22,848 nucleotides of DNA from positions 1-22,848 of IMG/VR virus record IMGVR_UViG_3300044682_000027; one strand, written 5' to 3'. The translations under genes and the position numbers were made by a program. Below are positions 869-12,114 of the stretch, piece by piece. Source of the stretch: a virus. The notes below the pieces were generated by a model, which saw only the letters and a program-made list of their open reading frames with translations, was not told the DNA's origin and did no database searches. Numbering within the stretch: position 1 is the first letter of the stretch; each line of letters opens with the position of its first letter.

Positions 869-2491
869 CTACTGCGGTGGCGGGAGTCTGAGCGGTTGGG
901 CATTGGCTGGAAGCGCCGGCTGAGGCGACTTGCGAAGTTGTTGCATAAGCGCTGCTACCCGCTCACCTTGACTCATCCCCGGATCGGGAGCCATCAGAGG
1001 GATTTTCCCGCCAGCCTGAGCCGGCAGCAGGTTGGTAGTCTGCGGAGGCCGGAAAGTCGGCGCGGGGAACGGTTCTGCCGGTTGCGCTGCCTTGAATGCG
1101 CGGGCAATCATCGAATCCGAGGAAGTGAAATTCTTCATCGCCTGGGATGTGACAATGTTTCCTGCTCCTTCGCCGATGCTGCCAATCCCACCCATGACAT
1201 TGCCTGTGAGGACTTGGCCGGCGCCCTTGACTGCCGTCCCGATTCCCTTCGCTGTTGAGATCTGCTCGGCCAGCGATACAGGATTCTGCCGCATGGCAAC
1301 CAGCTGGCGCCCATAAAGCTCCTTCTGGACATTGGTCAGCGAACCATAGGCCTGCTTGAGCTGCGCTGCTCCTGGCCCGCTCAGGGTGTCTAGCTTGCTA
1401 TAGAGAGCGCTGCGGAGCGCATCTCCTTCGGCGATGGTCGGAGAGATTTGCGGATCATTCTGAGCAACCTGCTGGCCTACCTTGTTCTTTGCGTAATAGG
1501 TATTGAGCTCTGCGTTGGTGGACTGGAGGAAGTCTTCGGCATCCGTGAGGCTCATCGGCTTCCTATACGTATCCGCCGTCTGCTCAATCTTCGCCACTAG
1601 GCTGGGATTCTGGGCCGCCGTACGCTTGTCGATGCTGTTCATCATTGCATCGGCAATCTGGTTTCCGTCGATGGTGGTTCCTGTCGCCGCGGCGGGTCCA
1701 AGCCTCTGCTGGTATTGCTGCCAGATCTGCTTCTTGGCGAGATTGGCTGTCTGAAGCGCATCGTCCACCCCGGTTACTGGATGCCCGAGTTGCACTTCTG
1801 CCGATTTCATCTGTGGAAGTGCCTGCTGAATAGCGTCATTCCACCCGGTGTTGTTCTTTCCTGGCTTGATGGCGCGGGTGAGCAAGTCTTCAGGGGTGCC
1901 ATCTACGAAAGAAGGGAAAACCTTGCTGGCGAGCTGCTTAGCTGCTCCACCCGCTGCGGGGACAATCCCTCCTCCGCCTCCCGAGTCATCCACTGCGCGT
2001 GCTACCGGTCCAGCCTCGCCGCCTCCAGCAAGCGCCAAAGCCGCTTGTGGGATAGCAGCAACAGCCTCGCCGCTGGGATTCTGCACGAAAGGCGTGATTG
2101 CCTTCTGCGCGAGGTCATATTGGTCGCCGACATTACCGAGAGCGGCGCGCCCCGTCTGCGCAATTCCAGCGACGGTGTTCAATGGATGAACGATAGGAGT
2201 CAGGAGGCGAGTTGCGCCCGCGCCTAAATTGGTTCCCAGAGATGACATGAGCTTGCCGATGCTGGAGGTATCAACCGGTACCGTTTGCGCGGCCCTATCA
2301 AATGCCTGATGTGCTGGGTCTGTGCCGGTAAGAACAGAGCCAAGGCTCCATCCAGAGGAAGACGGGGGAGCCGCGATCGGCTTTCCGCTCGAATCCCATT
2401 CGGTGGCAGACAGGGGGGCAGTAGCGGAAGGAGAAACCGGCTGGCCGTTCGCATCCCACTCGACTACGGGCGCGGTTGCTGAAGTTGCCAT
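869..2491 (-). CDS. Putative ejection/internal virion protein (gp16 position)
   Basis: 540 aa, ATG start with AAGGGA upstream. The gene overlaps the preceding one by 28 bp, which suggests translational coupling. The N-terminus carries two copies of a short motif, EWDANGQPVS at about residue 11 and EWDSSGKPIA at about residue 31, then an Ala/Gly/Pro-rich region and a helical, Gln-rich centre. Around residues 420-450 there is a Gly-rich, weakly hydrophobic stretch (GQVLTGNVMGGIGSIG). I recognise no catalytic domain. It is the last of three large, Gln/Ala-rich, low-complexity proteins between the tail accessory genes and the tailspike, exactly where P22 has its ejection genes 7, 20 and 16. I therefore infer a protein delivered with DNA into the cell envelope. 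Sequence similarity to P22 gp16 itself is not visible. Confidence 0.6.
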   Translation of the reverse strand: MATSATAPVVEWDANGQPVSPSATAPLSATEWDSSGKPIAAPPSSSGWSLGSVLTGTDPAHQAFDRAAQTVPVDTSSIGKLMSSLGTNLGAGATRLLTPIVHPLNTVAGIAQTGRAALGNVGDQYDLAQKAITPFVQNPSGEAVAAIPQAALALAGGGEAGPVARAVDDSGGGGGIVPAAGGAAKQLASKVFPSFVDGTPEDLLTRAIKPGKNNTGWNDAIQQALPQMKSAEVQLGHPVTGVDDALQTANLAKKQIWQQYQQRLGPAAATGTTIDGNQIADAMMNSIDKRTAAQNPSLVAKIEQTADTYRKPMSLTDAEDFLQSTNAELNTYYAKNKVGQQVAQNDPQISPTIAEGDALRSALYSKLDTLSGPGAAQLKQAYGSLTNVQKELYGRQLVAMRQNPVSLAEQISTAKGIGTAVKGAGQVLTGNVMGGIGSIGEGAGNIVTSQAMKNFTSSDSMIARAFKAAQPAEPFPAPTFRPPQTTNLLPAQAGGKIPLMAPDPGMSQGERVAALMQQLRKSPQPALPANAQPLRLPPPQ

Positions 2492-3990
2492 GATCCCTTT
2501 CCGCCGTTACCCTGCGGGTTCCATGTCGCATTGGCTGGTACGCCTTGTGGCCTCGCTGGGGGCGCTGCTGCCCCGGGTAGGCCTTTTCCATACATGCGCT
2601 GCATGATGGGGTTGTCACCCATGCGTGACTGCCACTGCGAATTGACCGCATTGCGAACGCCAGCAAAGGACCCGGCTCGAGCATCGGGGCTCATTGCCGC
2701 CTTGAAGAGATTGAAAGCCGCATTCCTGGATGCATCGCTCCCAGTTCCACCGCCCATAACCTTGGAATAGTCGTCTGCTGCTCCTACCGCAGCCGAGGCG
2801 TATTGAGCCAATGGGCCGTTGCCGGTCGCAGCCTTCGCCCAATCCTCTGCGGTATTGAGAGCGGGTAGGGAGTGCTGCGGGATCTTCTTTGCCGCTTCGG
2901 CGAGTTGATCAAGCGTCCCACCGGGAGCCGTGAGGGATTTGATGGACTGGAAAACTGCTGTGTTTGTCGGAGACTTGGCCACATCGTAATAGGCGTCCAT
3001 CTGCTGGGCGTTATATTGGCCATTGCTGAGTTGGTGCGCGCCATTTAAAGTCTGCTGGATAAATTCAGGCGTAGCACCCCGGGCCTTGAGTTCGGATAAG
3101 GTAGCGTCTCCGCTGACCAATAACTTGGCGGCTGCCATCGGATCGCCCTGGGAGAGAGCCTGATGTTGAGCAGCGAGGGACATTTCTCCCGGCATCCGCG
3201 CCGATTCCTCCGCACCGGCCTTCTGTGCGGCTGTCTGGATCGCATTCTGCTGGATTTGCTGAGCACCTGGAGCCGTCCCGAGCGCAATCGATGCCTGAGA
3301 GGGCTCATAGAGCGAGCTTTGGGGATTCATCTGAGCTTGGAGTTTCTGTGCGCCGGTCTGGGCTTCCGTGGCGCGCGCCTGAGCCGTAGTATCCGCTGCG
3401 CCGAGTTCGCGCTGCTTGGGGGATGCCTGAATAGCCGCATCCACGATCTGCTTCAGCGCCTGCGGATTGTCAATCTGCTGGCGTATCTGCTGCAATTGCG
3501 GGGTCTGTGGAAGGGAGTCAAAGAGGCTATGTGCAAGCGCCGGATCATAGCCAGCCGCCTTGACTGCGGCGGCTGCCGAGCCTTCCATATCTGCTTGTTT
3601 GGACTGAAGATCAGCCTTTGCTGTTTGAAGATCAACGCTGCTTTTCTGGAAGTCGACAATATTCTTCATCACAGCGGGGGTTTGATAAGCTGCTGGACCG
3701 CTTGCCAGACCCTGCTGCAGCTTGTTCGGATCGAGCGTTGCTTGCCCGTTCGAATCGGTTGTCATGGCCCCGGCATAGGCTTTATTGAGTGCCTGCCGTG
3801 CCGCCAAATCCTGCTGTTGCTGCTGGATTCCAAGACCGCCCGCCTGTACCTGCTGCTGGAGAGCCTGTTGCTGCAAGGGCTGATTCTGCATCAGGCTCCG
3901 GAGCTGCACAATCTTGGAAGCCTGATCGAGCGCGTTCGGCGGCTGCGCGGGGGGTTGGACAGAGAGCGCTGCGAGAGGAATTGATCCCAT
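2464..3990 (-). CDS. Putative ejection/internal virion protein, Gln-rich coiled coil (gp20 position)
   Basis: 508 aa. The ATG overlaps the stop of the upstream gene by one base (TAATG). The first about 180 residues are very rich in Gln, Ala and Leu (LQQQALQQQVQAGGLGIQQQ) and predict as long helices or coiled coil. The middle contains repeated Ala/Gln helices, and the C-terminus is Pro/Gly/Trp-rich (NATWNPQGNGGKGSWQ). There is no signal peptide and no recognisable enzyme motif. Length (P22 gp20 is about 470 aa) and position in the ejection cassette support an internal virion protein that forms part of the DNA-translocating assembly. The family assignment rests on synteny and composition, not on a recognised domain. 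Confidence 0.6.
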   Translation of the reverse strand: MGSIPLAALSVQPPAQPPNALDQASKIVQLRSLMQNQPLQQQALQQQVQAGGLGIQQQQQDLAARQALNKAYAGAMTTDSNGQATLDPNKLQQGLASGPAAYQTPAVMKNIVDFQKSSVDLQTAKADLQSKQADMEGSAAAAVKAAGYDPALAHSLFDSLPQTPQLQQIRQQIDNPQALKQIVDAAIQASPKQRELGAADTTAQARATEAQTGAQKLQAQMNPQSSLYEPSQASIALGTAPGAQQIQQNAIQTAAQKAGAEESARMPGEMSLAAQHQALSQGDPMAAAKLLVSGDATLSELKARGATPEFIQQTLNGAHQLSNGQYNAQQMDAYYDVAKSPTNTAVFQSIKSLTAPGGTLDQLAEAAKKIPQHSLPALNTAEDWAKAATGNGPLAQYASAAVGAADDYSKVMGGGTGSDASRNAAFNLFKAAMSPDARAGSFAGVRNAVNSQWQSRMGDNPIMQRMYGKGLPGAAAPPARPQGVPANATWNPQGNGGKGSWQLQQPRP

Positions 3991-5195
3991 TAGAAGCTAT
4001 TCCCGTCTGCGGTGACAGAGTTCGCCGCGTTAAGATCGCTGGAGCCTTGCGTTGCGCTCAGTGAATTGAGCAGGGCGAGATTGCCGAGGTTGCTGGTTAC
4101 CCCGCTCAGACCCCCGCTCAGGGCGTTTGCCGATCCGACCACGCCGGATGCATTAGCCGCGCCAGCATTCTGGAGAGCGGAGCCGATATTCGCGCCGGTC
4201 GAGAGCAGGTTGCTCGAAACGCCGGACGCCGCACTTGATCCAAGCTGCCCGAGTTGAGCCGCCGTTGTCTGCCCGAGTCCTGCTAGATTGGCGAGCCGGT
4301 TGTATTCGTTGGTCTGCTGGTTTTGGAACTCATTGTACCCCGAAGCATAGGTGTTATATGCATCGTTGTAGACGTTCTGATAATTGGTAGAGGCTAGGTT
4401 CTGCCCGTAGGCATCGAGGGCTTGAGCTGTTCCGCCAGTGAGCAGATTCCCTTGCGCGGCGGCTGACTGCTGCATCGCCTGTTCGCCAAGCTGCAACTGT
4501 GCCTGCTCGCCGGGTGAGTTGAGGGCCTGCTGTGCTGTCGGGGCAACGAATGGGCCGCCGGGATAGGCTTGCAGAAGCGAGCCGGGTGCGCCGTTGGCCG
4601 GATTGACCAGAGAGCCTAGATTTGTGGTTCCTGTGGCAGTCGTGCCACTCGAAGGTGTTGCGCCGAGACCAGCCGTGTAAGGCTGCAGCGTCGATCCGGT
4701 GCCGGGCGTTGTCGGTGTACCATTTGGGCCGACCGTAGCGATTGTATTTCGGATGTTGTTGTTCGTGTTGAGTATCGGCTGGGGGCTGGATATTGTGTTC
4801 TGCGGGGTTGCCCCGTATGGCACCGCACCGGATATTGGCTGCCCATTGGTCCCGGTGGGCACGGCGCCTGTGGTACCTGCGCCGGTAAACGCGCCTGGAG
4901 TTCCCGCCGTTGCGCCTGTGGTAGTGGGAGGGGTGATTCCTAGCAGCGAATCGAGGTTGGCCTCTGCGCCTATGCCTGATTGCAGGAAAGGGGCTAGATT
5001 GGATTGCTGCTGCCCGTATTCGCCTTCCTCGAAGCCTAGAGCCTGCTGCGACTCTTCGTATTGGAGCTGCGCGGCTTGTTCTGCGGCTGCAGACTGATCT
5101 CCTGCAGCAGTCTGCGAAGCGCTGGCGCCGATGGCCGCCCCGCCGATTGATCCAATTGCCCCGATAGTTCCCGCTGCGATGGCCGCTGTTGACAT
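3990..5195 (-). CDS. Putative DNA-ejection protein with glycine-zipper-like N-terminus (gp7 position)
   Basis: 401 aa, ATG four bases after the stop of the GNAT gene. Residues about 5-28 form a small-residue-rich hydrophobic helix with repeated G-x-x-x-G/A spacing (AAGTIGAIGSIGGAAIGASA), as in membrane-inserting N-termini of podovirus ejection proteins. A Gln/Glu/Ala helix follows (about 30-65), then a long Thr/Pro/Gly/Asn low-complexity region (about 85-215) and a helical C-terminal half with QNEYNRL-type repeats. It is the first of the three-gene ejection block and lies directly downstream of the ACP and GNAT genes, which makes it the first candidate to test as their substrate. The ejection role is inferred from the N-terminus and synteny; it is longer than P22 gp7 (about 230 aa). 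Confidence 0.65.
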   Translation of the reverse strand: MSTAAIAAGTIGAIGSIGGAAIGASASQTAAGDQSAAAEQAAQLQYEESQQALGFEEGEYGQQQSNLAPFLQSGIGAEANLDSLLGITPPTTTGATAGTPGAFTGAGTTGAVPTGTNGQPISGAVPYGATPQNTISSPQPILNTNNNIRNTIATVGPNGTPTTPGTGSTLQPYTAGLGATPSSGTTATGTTNLGSLVNPANGAPGSLLQAYPGGPFVAPTAQQALNSPGEQAQLQLGEQAMQQSAAAQGNLLTGGTAQALDAYGQNLASTNYQNVYNDAYNTYASGYNEFQNQQTNEYNRLANLAGLGQTTAAQLGQLGSSAASGVSSNLLSTGANIGSALQNAGAANASGVVGSANALSGGLSGVTSNLGNLALLNSLSATQGSSDLNAANSVTADGNSF

Positions 5196-5199
5196 GCCT

Positions 5200-5646
5200 T
5201 CAAATCCTCTTGATGAATGCGAAGTCGCTCAACTTATACCCGAGAGCGGCAAATAGTTTGGAATGGTCACGGTGAATTTTGCATGACAGGTAAACCTTGA
5301 TAGCGCCCAGCCTACGGGCTATTCCTTCGGCGCATCGGATCATCTTGGCTCCCGTACCCGACCTGCTCTCTGGGCTCACGTAATAAGCGTCCACGATGAA
5401 CATGGGAGGCGATGACTTATAGTGCAGGTGTCTGCTGAAGATCGCTAACAGGTAACCGACCATCTTGCCGTCTTCCCGCGCAGTGATCACCTTGAACATG
5501 CCGATGTTTTCCATCGCCTTCATTTTCTCGATGTCAGGGTCGATGTTCAGATCGAGGTCGAGCCCCAGCTCCTGCCAGTGCGCATAGACCAGATCCTTTG
5601 CCTCAGCTGCCCACGTAGCCACCGATTCAAGCTGGAATGTTGTCAT
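5200..5646 (-). CDS. GNAT-fold N-acyltransferase
   Basis: 148 aa, ATG with AGGA about six bases upstream. The gene overlaps the end of the ACP gene by 20 bp. The layout is that of GNAT: strands 2-3 at residues 50-70 (MFKVITAREDGKMVGYLLAIF, hairpin at DG), strand 4 at 83-90 (FIVDAYYV), the acyl-CoA loop PESRSGTGA (92-100), helix 3 (MIRCAEGIARRLG) and a C-terminal LFAALGYKLSDFAFIKRI typical of the family. The pyrophosphate-binding loop is atypical: R-S-G-T-G-A is one residue short of, or lacks the central glycine of, the usual R/Q-x-x-G-x-G/A. T7 gp13, encoded beside internal virion genes, belongs to an acetyltransferase-like family, so a GNAT beside ejection genes has a precedent. Whether this enzyme uses CoA or the neighbouring ACP as acyl donor cannot be told from sequence. 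Confidence 0.85.
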   Translation of the reverse strand: MTTFQLESVATWAAEAKDLVYAHWQELGLDLDLNIDPDIEKMKAMENIGMFKVITAREDGKMVGYLLAIFSRHLHYKSSPPMFIVDAYYVSPESRSGTGAKMIRCAEGIARRLGAIKVYLSCKIHRDHSKLFAALGYKLSDFAFIKRI

Positions 5647-5833
5647 AGATATCCTGAACGGTTTCTATTTTGGGAACTGCGCTATCAGGAATCTCGCCGA
5701 ACTCCTCGCCGATGCGCATCAGGAGCATGGTGAATTCGAGGGAATCGTCGACTAGATCACTGATCTTAGAATCGGCATTGCATGCCTTGCAAGTTTCATC
5801 TGCGACCGCCGCTATCACGTCTTCAATCGTCAT
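5627..5833 (-). CDS. Acyl carrier protein (68 aa)
   Basis: ATG with GAGGG upstream, six bases after the stop of the fibre gene. The protein is small and acidic and follows bacterial ACP along its whole length: N-terminal helix TIEDVIAAVADE, then DLVDDSLEFTMLLMRIGEEF with the phosphopantetheine attachment Ser31 in a D-S-L-E box, the helix-2 recognition surface, EIPDSAV, and KIETVQDIYDNI matching the K-I-x-T-V-Q-x-x-x-D-x-I of E. coli ACP. It is about nine residues shorter than AcpP, mainly in the loop before the Ser. It would be cytosolic, made as holo-ACP by the host AcpS, and would carry acyl chains as thioesters. The 20-bp overlap with the GNAT gene implies coupled synthesis. No other fatty-acid genes are present, so acyl loading must come from the host. 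Confidence 0.9.
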   Translation of the reverse strand: MTIEDVIAAVADETCKACNADSKISDLVDDSLEFTMLLMRIGEEFGEIPDSAVPKIETVQDIYDNIPA

Positions 5834-5839
5834 TTGCCC

Positions 5840-7627
5840 TCAATTAAGAACGGTGAAGCGATATGTGCTCGTGTCTGTCGCACCACATAACACGCTAAAT
5901 CCAGTGCCCGCTGTCAGAGTCTTGATGGCGGGCGTTGTTGTTATAACACCGCCAGCGGTTTCTAGTGTTATTAGAATATCCGATCCCACAATAACTGGAG
6001 TTGATGCGACTGTGATTGTGCCTGCTGCTGTGCAAGTGAATGTTCCTCTGCGAGCTGTCGGAGGAGTAAATCCACCAGTGCTGCCAATTAAAATTGTCCC
6101 GCCGCTTGCAATACCGAGTCCGAGAGTTACATCAGCAGCGGTTGCATTGTCGTTGAAAACAATGCTGGCCGACTGATTGGCTGAGGCTGACTTGCCAAGC
6201 TGAATCGCGTTAAACCCGTTCGTAGCCATCGCCGAATTAAAGATCATGAACGGTGTCGTGGATGTGCTGTTCTGGACAAATGTTCCCTGATTGCTCAGTC
6301 CCCCAAAAGTCCCCAAGCCTGTGCATGTAAGGATTCCCGTACCGGAAGACGAGCATCCAGCAGGAAGTCCGCCGCTACTAGAATTTGCCAGCACAAACGC
6401 ATCTGTAGCGAGAGCTGTAGTGTTATCGCCTACGGTCTGTGTAGTTGCTGACGTTCCATTCGGAAGCGTTGGCGTACCGCTTAGATTAGCCGCAGTGCCT
6501 GTGGTATTCACACTGCCCGCAAATGTCTCAGCATTTGATTGTGCAGTAGCAGCCGCACCCGCTGCATCAAACGCCGACGTGGGCTGAAACGCCGCTGTGC
6601 CAAACGAACCGCCGGCAGCACTAGTAAGGGCAGTAAGACTAATAAGCGTACTGTTTGTTGTCGCCGTTATGTTTGATGCTGTCGTTGCACTAGTCGCATT
6701 TCCAGCAAATCCTCCAGGAGCAGTAACTTTTCCCGTGGTATCAATTGTCATAAGAGGATTGCCTACTATACCAAAAGAAGCTGTATTAAGTGAAGATGCT
6801 AAACCTCCTACATTATTGAACACAACCTCAGCGGAGTTGTTGCCAGTCGTCGCTGTGCCCAATCTTATAGCAGTCAGATTGCCAATTGCTAGATTTGCTT
6901 GAAGAGAGGTTATTACAGTAGCTGACACAGATGCAGTACTTGCGGCACCAAAAGGACCAGTCAGGGTGCAACCTGCAAGAAGACAAGCTGTACCGGCGGC
7001 AACGAATGTGGAGCTGGGCTGGAACGCTGCCGTGCCGAATGCGCCCCCGGCTGCTGTGGTCAGAGCGGAAAGCGTCACAAGGGTGGAATTCGTGGTTGCG
7101 GTCACGTTACCGGCCGTATTCGACGTCGCCTGATTCAGGGTTGGCACATCGGCTGCGACGATGGCGCGGAACGTGGGAGCGGAGCTTCCGGTGGCCGGGC
7201 CAGCGAGGAAAGTATTTGCCGACTGGGAATTGAATGAGAATGCCTGCGTTCCGCTCGCGCTGAGGGTGGTCGGCGATGCAGACATGAACGAAGGAAGGCT
7301 CCATGTGATGCTGCCAATTCCGCTCCCGCTGCTCGATCCGGTGAAAGTGCAGGTTGTTCCCGAGCAGGACCCGGCCCCGGTGTTGAAATTGAAAGTAAAT
7401 GCGCCCGTAGTGCCGTTGATGCTGGCCACTCCGGCCCCGCTGCCTCCGGGGATGACATATACCCCGCCGACGCAAGCGAATATGCCGCCTATAGTAGTGC
7501 TTTGCACGAGGGAATTAGGTACAGAGCACGAGGTTCCCGCTGGATTTCCAGTGAATAGATTGATCTGCGGGATGCGCTGCGCGGCGAGCGGCAAGGCCAG
7601 CAGGAACAGGAGAGCCATTTTCTTCAA
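5840..7627 (-). CDS. Tail/head fibre-like repeat protein with Sec signal peptide
   Basis: 595 aa from a TTG start whose TTGA overlaps the TGA of the upstream gene. This start is preferred over a longer frame because it gives a clean signal peptide, MKKMALLFLLALPLAA before Q. The mature protein is Ser/Thr/Gly/Ala/Asn-rich. A block of about 33 residues is duplicated (residues about 174-206 and 319-351, both N-[VI]-T-A-T-T-N-S-T-L ... GTAAFQP), and a second short unit (A-I-x-L-G ... N-x-S-A-x-[VI]-V-F-N) also recurs. The C-terminal about 70 residues (RGTFTCTAAGTITVAS ... TGTGFSVLCGATDTSTYRFTVLN) resemble a beta-domain that I recall at the end of many phage fibre proteins. A trimeric fibre shaft with a C-terminal knob is likely. 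The signal peptide is unexpected for a virion component. Confidence 0.7.
   Translation of the reverse strand: MKKMALLFLLALPLAAQRIPQINLFTGNPAGTSCSVPNSLVQSTTIGGIFACVGGVYVIPGGSGAGVASINGTTGAFTFNFNTGAGSCSGTTCTFTGSSSGSGIGSITWSLPSFMSASPTTLSASGTQAFSFNSQSANTFLAGPATGSSAPTFRAIVAADVPTLNQATSNTAGNVTATTNSTLVTLSALTTAAGGAFGTAAFQPSSTFVAAGTACLLAGCTLTGPFGAASTASVSATVITSLQANLAIGNLTAIRLGTATTGNNSAEVVFNNVGGLASSLNTASFGIVGNPLMTIDTTGKVTAPGGFAGNATSATTASNITATTNSTLISLTALTSAAGGSFGTAAFQPTSAFDAAGAAATAQSNAETFAGSVNTTGTAANLSGTPTLPNGTSATTQTVGDNTTALATDAFVLANSSSGGLPAGCSSSGTGILTCTGLGTFGGLSNQGTFVQNSTSTTPFMIFNSAMATNGFNAIQLGKSASANQSASIVFNDNATAADVTLGLGIASGGTILIGSTGGFTPPTARRGTFTCTAAGTITVASTPVIVGSDILITLETAGGVITTTPAIKTLTAGTGFSVLCGATDTSTYRFTVLN
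6575..7108 (-). repeat. Duplicated ~33-residue unit within the fibre gene
   Basis: Coding copies at 7010-7108 and 6575-6673 encode near-identical blocks starting N-[VI]-TATTNSTL and ending GTAAFQP[ST]S. Spacing between copies is 336 bp. The duplication marks an internal shaft repeat of the fibre protein. Confidence 0.7.
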
Positions 7628-8415
7628 GGGAACACCACCACATCTATCGTGAAAGATCCCCAACTGATGCCGCTCACTACCGGCAACGTTATCTGCGCTC
7701 CAACGGTATTGGCAGCCGTCACTCCTACCAGCAGGTTCTGAATGTTAGCCGCGATGCCCAGATATCCTCCGTTGTTCGACCCTATGGCTGCCATCCCTAC
7801 CGCTGCCCCGGTTACCGTTCCCGACCCCGCGAAGGTGCCGCTTGCTGCCCCGCCAGCATTGATGACCACAGTTCCCTTGAGATAGGCGACCGCTGTCGAA
7901 GTCGCATTGACCGTGACCGCTCCGGTTCCGCCTGCCGGGCTGATCGATACACCGGTTCCAGCAATGATCTGCGTTACGGCCGTGGGAGGCGTTACCGGCT
8001 CCCAGGTCGTGCCGTTGAACTCAAGAATCTGGCCGGCCACCGGTCCCGATGCGGAGAGAGCTGCAAAAGCCAGCTTGCCGCCGGCTATCGGGCTACCCGT
8101 TCCGTCTGCGATGAAATTTATGTTCTGGTTCGTATAAATCCGGCTGAAGTCGATGCCGGGCGGGAGCATGATGCCGGTAAGGTCGAGATTGGCAGTCTTC
8201 TCATTCAGCGCGATAAGCGTGCCAGAAAGCCCTTCGGGAATCCCGGCAACCTCGATTGTCGAGCTAAGCTTACCCTGCTGATTGAATGCGATATTGATCG
8301 TCTGCCCGGCGTATTGGAGCCATCTCCGAGCCGCATCCGTAAGCATTCCGTTCCGGTCCACGAATGGGCTGCGGATGATCGTTGCCGAGAGAACCTGTCC
8401 TGAGGTGTTGCTCAT
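7624..8415 (-). CDS. Fibre/tail-tip structural protein (gp26 position)
   Basis: 263 aa, with an ATGA overlap to the gp10-like gene upstream. The N-terminus contains PFVDRNGMLTDAARRWLQY, a P-x-V-D-x-x-G-x-x-T-x-x-x-x-x-W pattern common in phage tail fibre and baseplate proteins. The rest is beta-rich and Gly/Thr/Ala-rich, including QILEFNGTTWEPVTPP and repeated IIAGTGVSISP-type turns usual in fibre shafts. There is no signal peptide, unlike the next gene. It occupies the slot of the P22 tail needle gp26 but does not look like a long coiled-coil needle, so a different tail closure or adapter for the following fibre is possible. Confidence 0.6.
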   Translation of the reverse strand: MSNTSGQVLSATIIRSPFVDRNGMLTDAARRWLQYAGQTINIAFNQQGKLSSTIEVAGIPEGLSGTLIALNEKTANLDLTGIMLPPGIDFSRIYTNQNINFIADGTGSPIAGGKLAFAALSASGPVAGQILEFNGTTWEPVTPPTAVTQIIAGTGVSISPAGGTGAVTVNATSTAVAYLKGTVVINAGGAASGTFAGSGTVTGAAVGMAAIGSNNGGYLGIAANIQNLLVGVTAANTVGAQITLPVVSGISWGSFTIDVVVFP

Positions 8416-11280: not shown

Positions 11281-12114
11281 TTAGTAGGACGAGCCGAACT
11301 TCTGCGTTACCGGATCGTATACCCAATACATGATCTTCCCGGCCACAGCGGTCGTAGCATTGGCAATATTTCCGGTCGCCGTCGCAGTGAAAGCTCCCGT
11401 TGGCACGATAGCAAATACGCATGTCCCAACCGTGGATGCCGCGAGAGGCGTTTGGCCAGCGCATCCTACAGGGAGGGTAAAAGACGTGATCGCGCCGGTT
11501 GAAACGCTAAACATCGAACTGGGAACAGCCACCGCGCCCGCACCGGAAAGAGTTCCGCCGTTGGGAGCCCCGGCTACAAAGAACAGCGGATTGTTGAATC
11601 CGGGAGTCCATGTACCAGTCTGCGCAGAGCAAATCCACTGAGCGCCTGTGATGATGTTCACCCAGGGCGTCAACAGCGTGTTTGCGGCCGTGCAAGCCGC
11701 TCCGTTACCTCCCGGAGGATCGGAAGCCTGTAGCCCACCGGATCCGGCTGTCTGCGGAGCATTGGTCTGAATAAGCGCCATTGCTCCCAGAGCATGAACT
11801 GCCGCCCTGGTTCCCTGCTGCGCCCGGAGCACATTGAACACGGTGGTTTGACCGGTCACGGCGCTGAGGATGCCAAACAGTTCCTGATCGATATAAACGA
11901 AAGTCTGCGGCTGGCCATTGTTCGCGACGTTGATACCAGTGGCAGACGTGAGGCTCAGGGTTGTGTTGTAGCTGCCGCCACCCTGCCCGGAGCCGCCACC
12001 GGCGCCTCCGACAGTGATAGCAGCGGCAAGCGTGGTTTGCGTCAAGGCTGTCTGGGCGTAAGAGCTCCCAGCCAGACCGAAGGCGATTGCGAGTAATGCA
12101 AGAATCTTTTTCAC
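11281..12114 (-). CDS. Signal-peptide protein in the head-tail gene block, fibre-like
   Basis: 277 aa, GTG start with AAGGAG upstream. It starts with a strong Sec signal peptide, MKKILALLAIAFGLAGSSYA before Q. The mature part is rich in Ala, Gly, Thr and Asn, contains a glycine linker (GGAGGGSGQGGGSYNT), then FVYIDQELFGILSAVTGQTTVFNVLRAQQGT, a sequence style seen in phage surface fibres, and ends with beta-rich segments. It lies directly after the coat gene. It may be an exported adhesin or a capsid-associated fibre; no domain is firmly recognised. It is one of three signal-peptide-bearing proteins in this virion cluster. Confidence 0.6.
   Translation of the reverse strand: MKKILALLAIAFGLAGSSYAQTALTQTTLAAAITVGGAGGGSGQGGGSYNTTLSLTSATGINVANNGQPQTFVYIDQELFGILSAVTGQTTVFNVLRAQQGTRAAVHALGAMALIQTNAPQTAGSGGLQASDPPGGNGAACTAANTLLTPWVNIITGAQWICSAQTGTWTPGFNNPLFFVAGAPNGGTLSGAGAVAVPSSMFSVSTGAITSFTLPVGCAGQTPLAASTVGTCVFAIVPTGAFTATATGNIANATTAVAGKIMYWVYDPVTQKFGSSY

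What the first reader, a model, noticed from the sequence alone, without database searches (positions are those of the whole stretch)
5200..5833. Phage acyl carrier protein overlapping a GNAT acyltransferase, placed at the head of the ejection-protein block
Seen: a 68-aa ACP with an intact D-S-L-E box (Ser31) and ACP-wide similarity, whose gene overlaps by 20 bp a GNAT-fold gene; four bases later the three ejection-type genes begin. Known: several GNAT-fold enzymes take acyl groups from acyl-ACP (LuxI-type synthases, HlyC-type toxin acyltransferases), and T7 gp13 next to internal virion genes is GNAT-like. Inference: the pair could acylate a virion protein, for instance the glycine-zipper N-terminus of the next gene's product, to help it enter the host membrane, much as RTX toxins are activated by acylation. 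Alternatives are modification of a host-envelope target, diversion of host fatty-acid flux, or synthesis of a small acylated signal. No other lipid genes are present, so the host would supply acyl-ACP or holo-ACP. I do not know of a described system of this kind in P22-like phages.
Basis: partly seen in the sequence, partly recalled or inferred. Interest (0 to 1): 0.88.

Follow-up and report, generated by a model that had tools for sequence, protein, structure and literature searches.

The report
Phage carrier protein paired with acyltransferase
A group of uncultured short-tailed phages always carries a small acyl carrier protein gene overlapping an acyltransferase gene just before the genes for the proteins injected into the host, which suggests, but does not prove, that these phages chemically modify their own injected proteins with a dedicated carrier.

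Summary
Window 5627-5833(-) encodes a genuine acyl carrier protein (ACP): PP-binding domain, D-S-L motif with Ser31 at the start of helix II, ACP fold. Window 5200-5646(-) encodes a GNAT with confident fold. They overlap by 20 bp and lie four bases before a gp7-like ejection gene. The pair is conserved: all 15 distinct viral contigs of this GNAT clade have the ACP overlapping the GNAT; D-S-L is invariant in all 15; both genes are under purifying selection. More distant GNAT relatives in many phages lack the ACP, but nearly all still lie directly before an ejection or tail-tip gene with a hydrophobic Ala/Gly-rich N-terminus; four have an aspartyl/asparaginyl hydroxylase gene upstream instead. 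ACP-paired GNATs differ from ACP-less ones in two active-site loops. Best reading: a phage-encoded, ACP-dependent N-acyltransferase that modifies a virion protein. The window's next gene product has no lysine or cysteine, so if that is the target its N-terminus is the only amine. Donor, acceptor and acyl chain are untested. I found no paper describing this pair.

The parts
5627..5833 (-). acyl carrier protein gene, 68 aa
   Evidence: Pfam PP-binding, PHROG 5934, profile match to PDB ACPs, AF2 model
5741..5743 (-). codon of Ser31, predicted 4'-phosphopantetheine attachment site
   Evidence: D-S-L invariant in 15 of 15 ACPs while the Ser codon varies over TCA, TCC, TCG, TCT
5627..5646 (-). 20-bp overlap of ACP end and GNAT start (translational coupling likely)
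   Evidence: overlap of 4 or 20-23 bp in 14 of 14 contigs with full genes
5200..5646 (-). GNAT-fold acyltransferase gene, 148 aa
   Evidence: Pfam Acetyltransf_1, PHROG 1249, AF2 pLDDT 90
5350..5364 (-). GNAT P-loop R95-S-G-T-G99, one residue shorter than in nearly all ACP-less relatives
   Evidence: 13 of 13 ACP-paired GNATs
5389..5391 (-). Asp86 on strand beta-4, candidate general base
   Evidence: conserved in 13/13 ACP-paired and 16/19 ACP-less relatives; DSSP strand 82-90
5419..5430 (-). HLHY motif (73-76) between strands 61-71 and 82-90, acceptor side; the loop up to Asp86 is one residue longer than in ACP-less relatives
3990..5195 (-). gp7-like DNA ejection protein, 401 aa, N-terminus MSTAAIAAG..., no Lys and no Cys; proposed acceptor
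   Evidence: PHROG 598 5e-9; composition and alignment
2464..3990 (-). second ejection-type gene (by position), 508 aa
   Evidence: position only; no family match
869..2491 (-). third ejection-type gene (by position), 540 aa
   Evidence: position only; no convincing family match

Best explanation
A two-gene, ACP-dependent N-acyltransferase cassette in the late operon of a clade of short-tailed phages. Shown: the ACP and GNAT are real, intact, co-conserved, overlapping and under purifying selection, and the GNAT belongs to a wider phage family that mostly sits directly before ejection or tail-tip genes. Inferred: the host phosphopantetheinyl transferase converts the phage ACP to holo form at Ser31 and host fatty-acid enzymes load it; the GNAT takes the acyl group from the ACP instead of CoA and puts it on a virion protein that must enter the host envelope, most likely the N-terminal amine (Ser2 after Met removal) of the gp7-like protein whose gene starts four bases later.
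For: 15/15 contigs of the clade keep the ACP overlapping the GNAT; D-S-L invariant with synonymous Ser codons and dN/dS about 0.1-0.3 for the ACP; ACP-paired GNATs form one clade, 99/98 support; candidate base Asp86 and His75 kept; two loops beside the active site changed in the ACP-paired clade; distant GNATs lie before ejection or tail genes with hydrophobic Ala/Gly-rich N-termini in several different gene families; another modification-type enzyme (Asp_Arg_Hydrox) precedes the GNAT in four phages; MSTAAI N-terminus conserved in 10 of 11 neighbours, no Lys in three.
Against: The AF2 model resembles acetyl-CoA GNATs and keeps most of the CoA loop. No PPTase or AMP-binding ligase in seven related contigs, several of them fragments. 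ACP association is a single event on the tree, so the loop changes could be unrelated to it. The hydrophobic N-terminus also occurs in ejection proteins of phages without the GNAT, so adjacency does not prove a substrate. One distant relative (L001) and the phages with a small protein before the portal fit the pattern less well. No biochemical data.
Confidence: 0.42

Rival explanations
1. The GNAT is an ordinary acetyl-CoA-dependent N-terminal or lysine acetyltransferase for virion proteins, and the ACP is a non-donor partner (chaperone, stabiliser or regulator of the GNAT).
For: Fold closest to acetyl-CoA GNATs including RimI; most of the family has no ACP; CoA loop largely kept.
Against: Strict conservation of D-S-L, needed for phosphopantetheine, in all 15 ACPs although the rest of the ACP varies; loop changes in the ACP-paired clade.
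Confidence: 0.25
2. The pair makes a small N-acyl molecule or modifies a host lipid or envelope component (like the ACP-dependent N-acyl amino acid synthases such as FeeM), to alter the host or exclude other phages.
For: ACP-dependent N-acyl amino acid synthases of this kind are known from soil DNA (PMC8762209); small enzyme with no obvious protein-binding extension.
Against: Sits inside the late structural block, nearly always directly before an ejection or tail-tip gene across the family; no Pfam match to FeeM- or LuxI-type families; no export or further biosynthesis gene recognised in the window.
Confidence: 0.15
3. The ACP diverts or sequesters host acyl groups or PPTase (host take-over); the GNAT is unrelated to it apart from operon position.
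For: Stand-alone phage ACPs are known and called auxiliary metabolic genes (PMC5463345, PMC10152775).
Against: Overlap with the GNAT in 14 of 14 complete pairs and absence of the ACP elsewhere in the loci held; placed with late structural genes.
Confidence: 0.1
4. A GNAT toxin-antitoxin pair with the small upstream gene as antitoxin.
For: A small gene upstream of and overlapping a GNAT gene resembles such operons (own knowledge); fold search lists a TacT toxin among many GNATs.
Against: Upstream protein is an ACP, not a DNA-binding antitoxin; relatives keep the GNAT without any such partner; no PADLOC match.
Confidence: 0.03

Closest known systems
FeeM-type N-acyl amino acid synthases (soil DNA; Van Wagoner and Clardy 2006, cited in PMC8762209)
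   Same: acyltransferase that takes a long acyl group from an ACP
   Different: acts on free amino acids; not known in phages; no Pfam match found for the phage GNAT; phage gene sits in a virion operon
HlyC/RtxC protoxin acyltransferases (PMC8339906)
   Same: ACP-dependent acylation of a membrane-penetrating protein encoded next door; GNAT-like fold
   Different: lysine acylation, no CoA-binding elements; here the CoA loop is mostly kept, an ACP is encoded in the operon, and the neighbour protein has no lysine
PHROG 1249 phage acetyltransferases before internal virion genes (Vibrio Zobellviridae, Pseudomonas PfAn1, others)
   Same: related GNAT in the same place before an ejection-type gene
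   Different: no ACP; P-loop one residue longer in nearly all; some have a 2OG hydroxylase upstream
T7 gp13 (PF11090, 'probable scaffold protein')
   Same: same map position, four bases before gp14
   Different: no detectable sequence relation to this GNAT family
Phage-encoded ACPs (PHROG 5934; Erythrobacter phage R6L, Vibrio phage R16F)
   Same: ACP on a phage genome
   Different: reported as auxiliary metabolic genes; no overlapping acyltransferase described in the passages read

Membership tests
Acyl carrier protein (PF00550) | PP-binding domain profile | tested here: met
   E 3e-4, 21.3 bits against a cut-off of 20.8; relatives up to 7e-13, one below the cut-off
Acyl carrier protein (PF00550) | D-S-L with phosphopantetheine Ser at the start of helix II | tested here: met
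   invariant in 15/15; Ser31 begins helix 31-45
Acyl carrier protein (PF00550) | ACP fold | tested here: met
   best PDB match E 5e-4; the listed matches are ACPs, alone or in complexes
Acyl carrier protein (PF00550) | carries 4'-phosphopantetheine and an acyl group | not testable with these tools
   needs mass spectrometry
GNAT acyltransferase | GNAT fold | tested here: met
   pLDDT 90; Z up to 16.4 to GNATs over 128-145 residues
GNAT acyltransferase | R/Q-x-x-G-x-G/A pyrophosphate loop | tested here: inconclusive
   R-x-G-[TA]-G, one residue short in all ACP-paired members
GNAT acyltransferase | acyl-CoA or acyl-ACP transfer activity | not testable with these tools
   needs enzyme assay
HlyC/RtxC toxin acyltransferase | HlyC sequence family | tested here: not met
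   only Acetyltransf models matched at E up to 1
HlyC/RtxC toxin acyltransferase | acceptor lysine in the neighbouring protein | tested here: not met
   no lysine in the window's gp7-like protein
LuxI / FeeM acyl-ACP-dependent synthases | family sequence profile | tested here: not met
   no Pfam or NCBIfam match; fold relation to them left open
T7 gp13 (PF11090) | gp13 sequence profile | tested here: not met
   hhalign probability under 1%; no GNAT match for gp13 in Pfam at E up to 0.5; fold relation not tested
GNAT toxin-antitoxin | DNA-binding antitoxin upstream | tested here: not met
   upstream protein is an ACP

The most novel reading that the evidence does not exclude
A phage-encoded carrier-protein and acyltransferase pair that attaches a fatty-acyl group to the N-terminus of an ejected virion protein: a lipidation system for genome-delivery proteins, part of a wider modification module in which different partner genes (ACP in one clade, an Asp/Asn hydroxylase in others) stand before a common GNAT.
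Probability: 0.27. Interest if true: 0.92.

Novelty: new variant of a known kind. Interest (0 to 1): 0.7.

Why it matters
How short-tailed phages get their ejected proteins through the host membrane is an open question. A dedicated acylation step would be a new principle and can be tested with two or three small genes in E. coli. It also gives a candidate function for the widespread but uncharacterised GNAT gene in front of ejection genes.

Tried and rejected
T7 gp13 homology: profile comparison with six gp13 sequences gave no signal; gp13 could not be folded here because its sequence came from an annotated record. Toxin-antitoxin and defence: no support. PPTase (PF01648) and acyl-adenylating enzymes (PF00501) in seven related contigs: none. 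Bacterial genomes with the GNAT or the portal: none found, so no host could be named. ACPs in other phages by tblastn: only weak hits in short unannotated records. Papers on a phage ACP-GNAT pair or acylated virion proteins: none found. In the VIA-align list LuxI, FeeM and HlyC structures do not appear among the top 50; this is no evidence against kinship. Net charge of the GNAT as a sign of ACP docking: not informative. ACP-GNAT complex prediction was not possible with the tools.

Full report
Observation. The ACP ORF runs 5833 to 5627 on the minus strand (68 aa, D30-S31-L32-E33) and the GNAT ORF 5646 to 5200 (148 aa); they overlap by 20 bp including the ACP stop, and the next gene starts at 5195 after four bases. 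The ACP just passes the Pfam PP-binding cut-off alone and matches the PHROG ACP family at 5e-6; a profile of the window ACP and eight relatives matches Aquifex ACP in the PDB at 1.7e-13. Its AF2 model (pLDDT 89.8) has Ser31 at the first residue of helix II, and the listed PDB matches are ACPs, alone or in complexes. The GNAT matches Acetyltransf_1 (1e-6) and PHROG 1249 (1e-9), and its model (pLDDT 90) is a standard GNAT fold. The next gene matches PHROG 598, DNA ejection (5e-9); the following two are ejection-type by position only.

Conservation of the pair. Close GNAT relatives (57-78% identity) were found in 14 further viral contigs. Every one has an ACP-like ORF overlapping the GNAT start, by 4 or 20-23 bp where both genes are complete. 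The ACPs vary a great deal (32-60% identity to the window; one is only 59 aa), yet D-S-L and two other Asp are invariant, and the Ser is written with all four TCN codons. Pairwise dN/dS is about 0.06-0.12 for the GNAT and 0.07-0.28 for the ACP among the closest pairs; pN is below pS in all 91 and 105 pairs. In the tree of 32 GNATs the ACP-paired ones form one clade, support 99/98. A profile search found no ACP in any other locus held. So the pairing arose once, as far as seen, and has been kept by selection.

The wider GNAT family. Distant relatives (19-35% identity to the window) occur in Vibrio Zobellviridae, Pseudomonas PfAn1, GP100, Limnohabitans DC33, Manatee Spring phages and a large marine siphophage group. 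They have no ACP. In nearly all of those examined the GNAT gene directly precedes a gp7/gp14-like ejection gene, a Zobellviridae core protein gene, a small protein gene before the portal, or, in the siphophages, a central tail fibre J-like gene. Most of these next-gene products share an Ala/Gly/Val-rich hydrophobic N-terminus (exceptions L001 and L090); about 10% of control ORFs in the same loci do, a figure that includes these very genes. The families are not all independent, and ejection proteins of phages without the GNAT have it too, so this is suggestive only. In four phages (L002, L004, L040, L041) the gene upstream of the GNAT is an Asp_Arg_Hydrox 2OG oxygenase, E 6e-14 to 2e-17, in several places on the tree. 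The GNAT thus looks like the core of a modification module with exchangeable partners (inference). P22-like phages related by the Hc3 protein can lack GNAT and ACP at this place altogether.

Signs of a changed donor. All 13 ACP-paired GNATs with full length in the alignment have a P-loop one residue shorter (R-x-G-[TA]-G) than 17 of 19 ACP-less relatives or more, and a stretch from HLHY to Asp86 one residue or more longer than all 19; K117 and C122 are invariant in the clade and absent outside it. Asp86 on strand beta-4, a usual place of the general base in GNATs (own knowledge), and His75 are kept across the family (13/13 and 16/19 each). This fits a change on the donor side with the acceptor chemistry kept, but it is one clade, and the CoA loop is not lost as it is in HlyC-type enzymes (PMC8339906), so CoA cannot be excluded. 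No PPTase or AMP-binding enzyme was found in seven related contigs; the host would have to supply phosphopantetheine and acyl groups.

Acceptor. The gp7-like product of the window has 401 residues with no lysine and no cysteine; two relatives (L008, L013) also have none, the others 2-7 lysines. Its N-terminus MSTAAI is the best conserved stretch, identical in 10 of 11 sequences. If this protein is the acceptor, the amine must be the N-terminus. That departs from the RTX comparison and sharpens the test. The other two ejection-type proteins have 23 and 24 lysines, so they remain possible targets. Published virion proteomics of the T7-like phage phiPsa17 found gp14, gp15 and gp16 but listed no gp13 (PMC4517105), which fits a non-virion role for the gene in that position, but gp13 itself showed no sequence relation to this GNAT family.

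Comparison with known systems. ACP-dependent acyltransferases of GNAT-like fold are known (FeeM, HlyC), and ACPs are known on phages (PMC5463345, PMC10152775), but no paper found describes an ACP-acyltransferase pair in a phage virion operon. The literature library is partial, so this is not proof of absence. I call it a new variant of a known kind. That the pairing is real and functional I hold at above 0.9; ACP-dependent acylation of a virion protein at 0.42; N-terminal fatty acylation of the next gene's product, as part of a wider module, at about 0.27.

Noticed in passing
window 11281-12114(-) and 5840-7663(-): Two proteins in the structural block begin with Sec signal peptide-like sequences (MKKILALLAIAFGLAGSSYAQ..., and KKMALLFLLALPLAAQ after a doubtful start). 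Similar starts occur in L010, L013 and L027. Exported phage structural-block proteins would be unusual.
   Followed up: no
L002:5378-6004, L004:5401-5997, L040:3391-3966, L041:3309-3866: Aspartyl/asparaginyl beta-hydroxylase-type 2OG oxygenase directly upstream of the GNAT in four distantly related phages.
   Followed up: partly
L028, L046, L080, L083 (of the group L044-L085): In the marine siphophages examined the same GNAT family sits between tail genes and a central tail fibre J-like gene with a very hydrophobic N-terminus.
   Followed up: partly
L029:3229 and L092-L096: T7-type gp14 proteins begin with Met-Cys (MCW, MCEPVS) or, in one case, MKMCDPVS, right after gp13; a conserved Cys near the N-terminus may be a modification site.
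   Followed up: no
L011:5204-5380 and L010, L015, L018, L024: Several of these ACPs lack 5-6 residues at the end of helix II; one is only 59 aa long, very small for an ACP.
   Followed up: no
L002 (PQ492659.1): Limnohabitans phage DC33, 39 kb and with what look like tailed-phage genes, is filed under Inoviridae in its record, which looks wrong.
   Followed up: no
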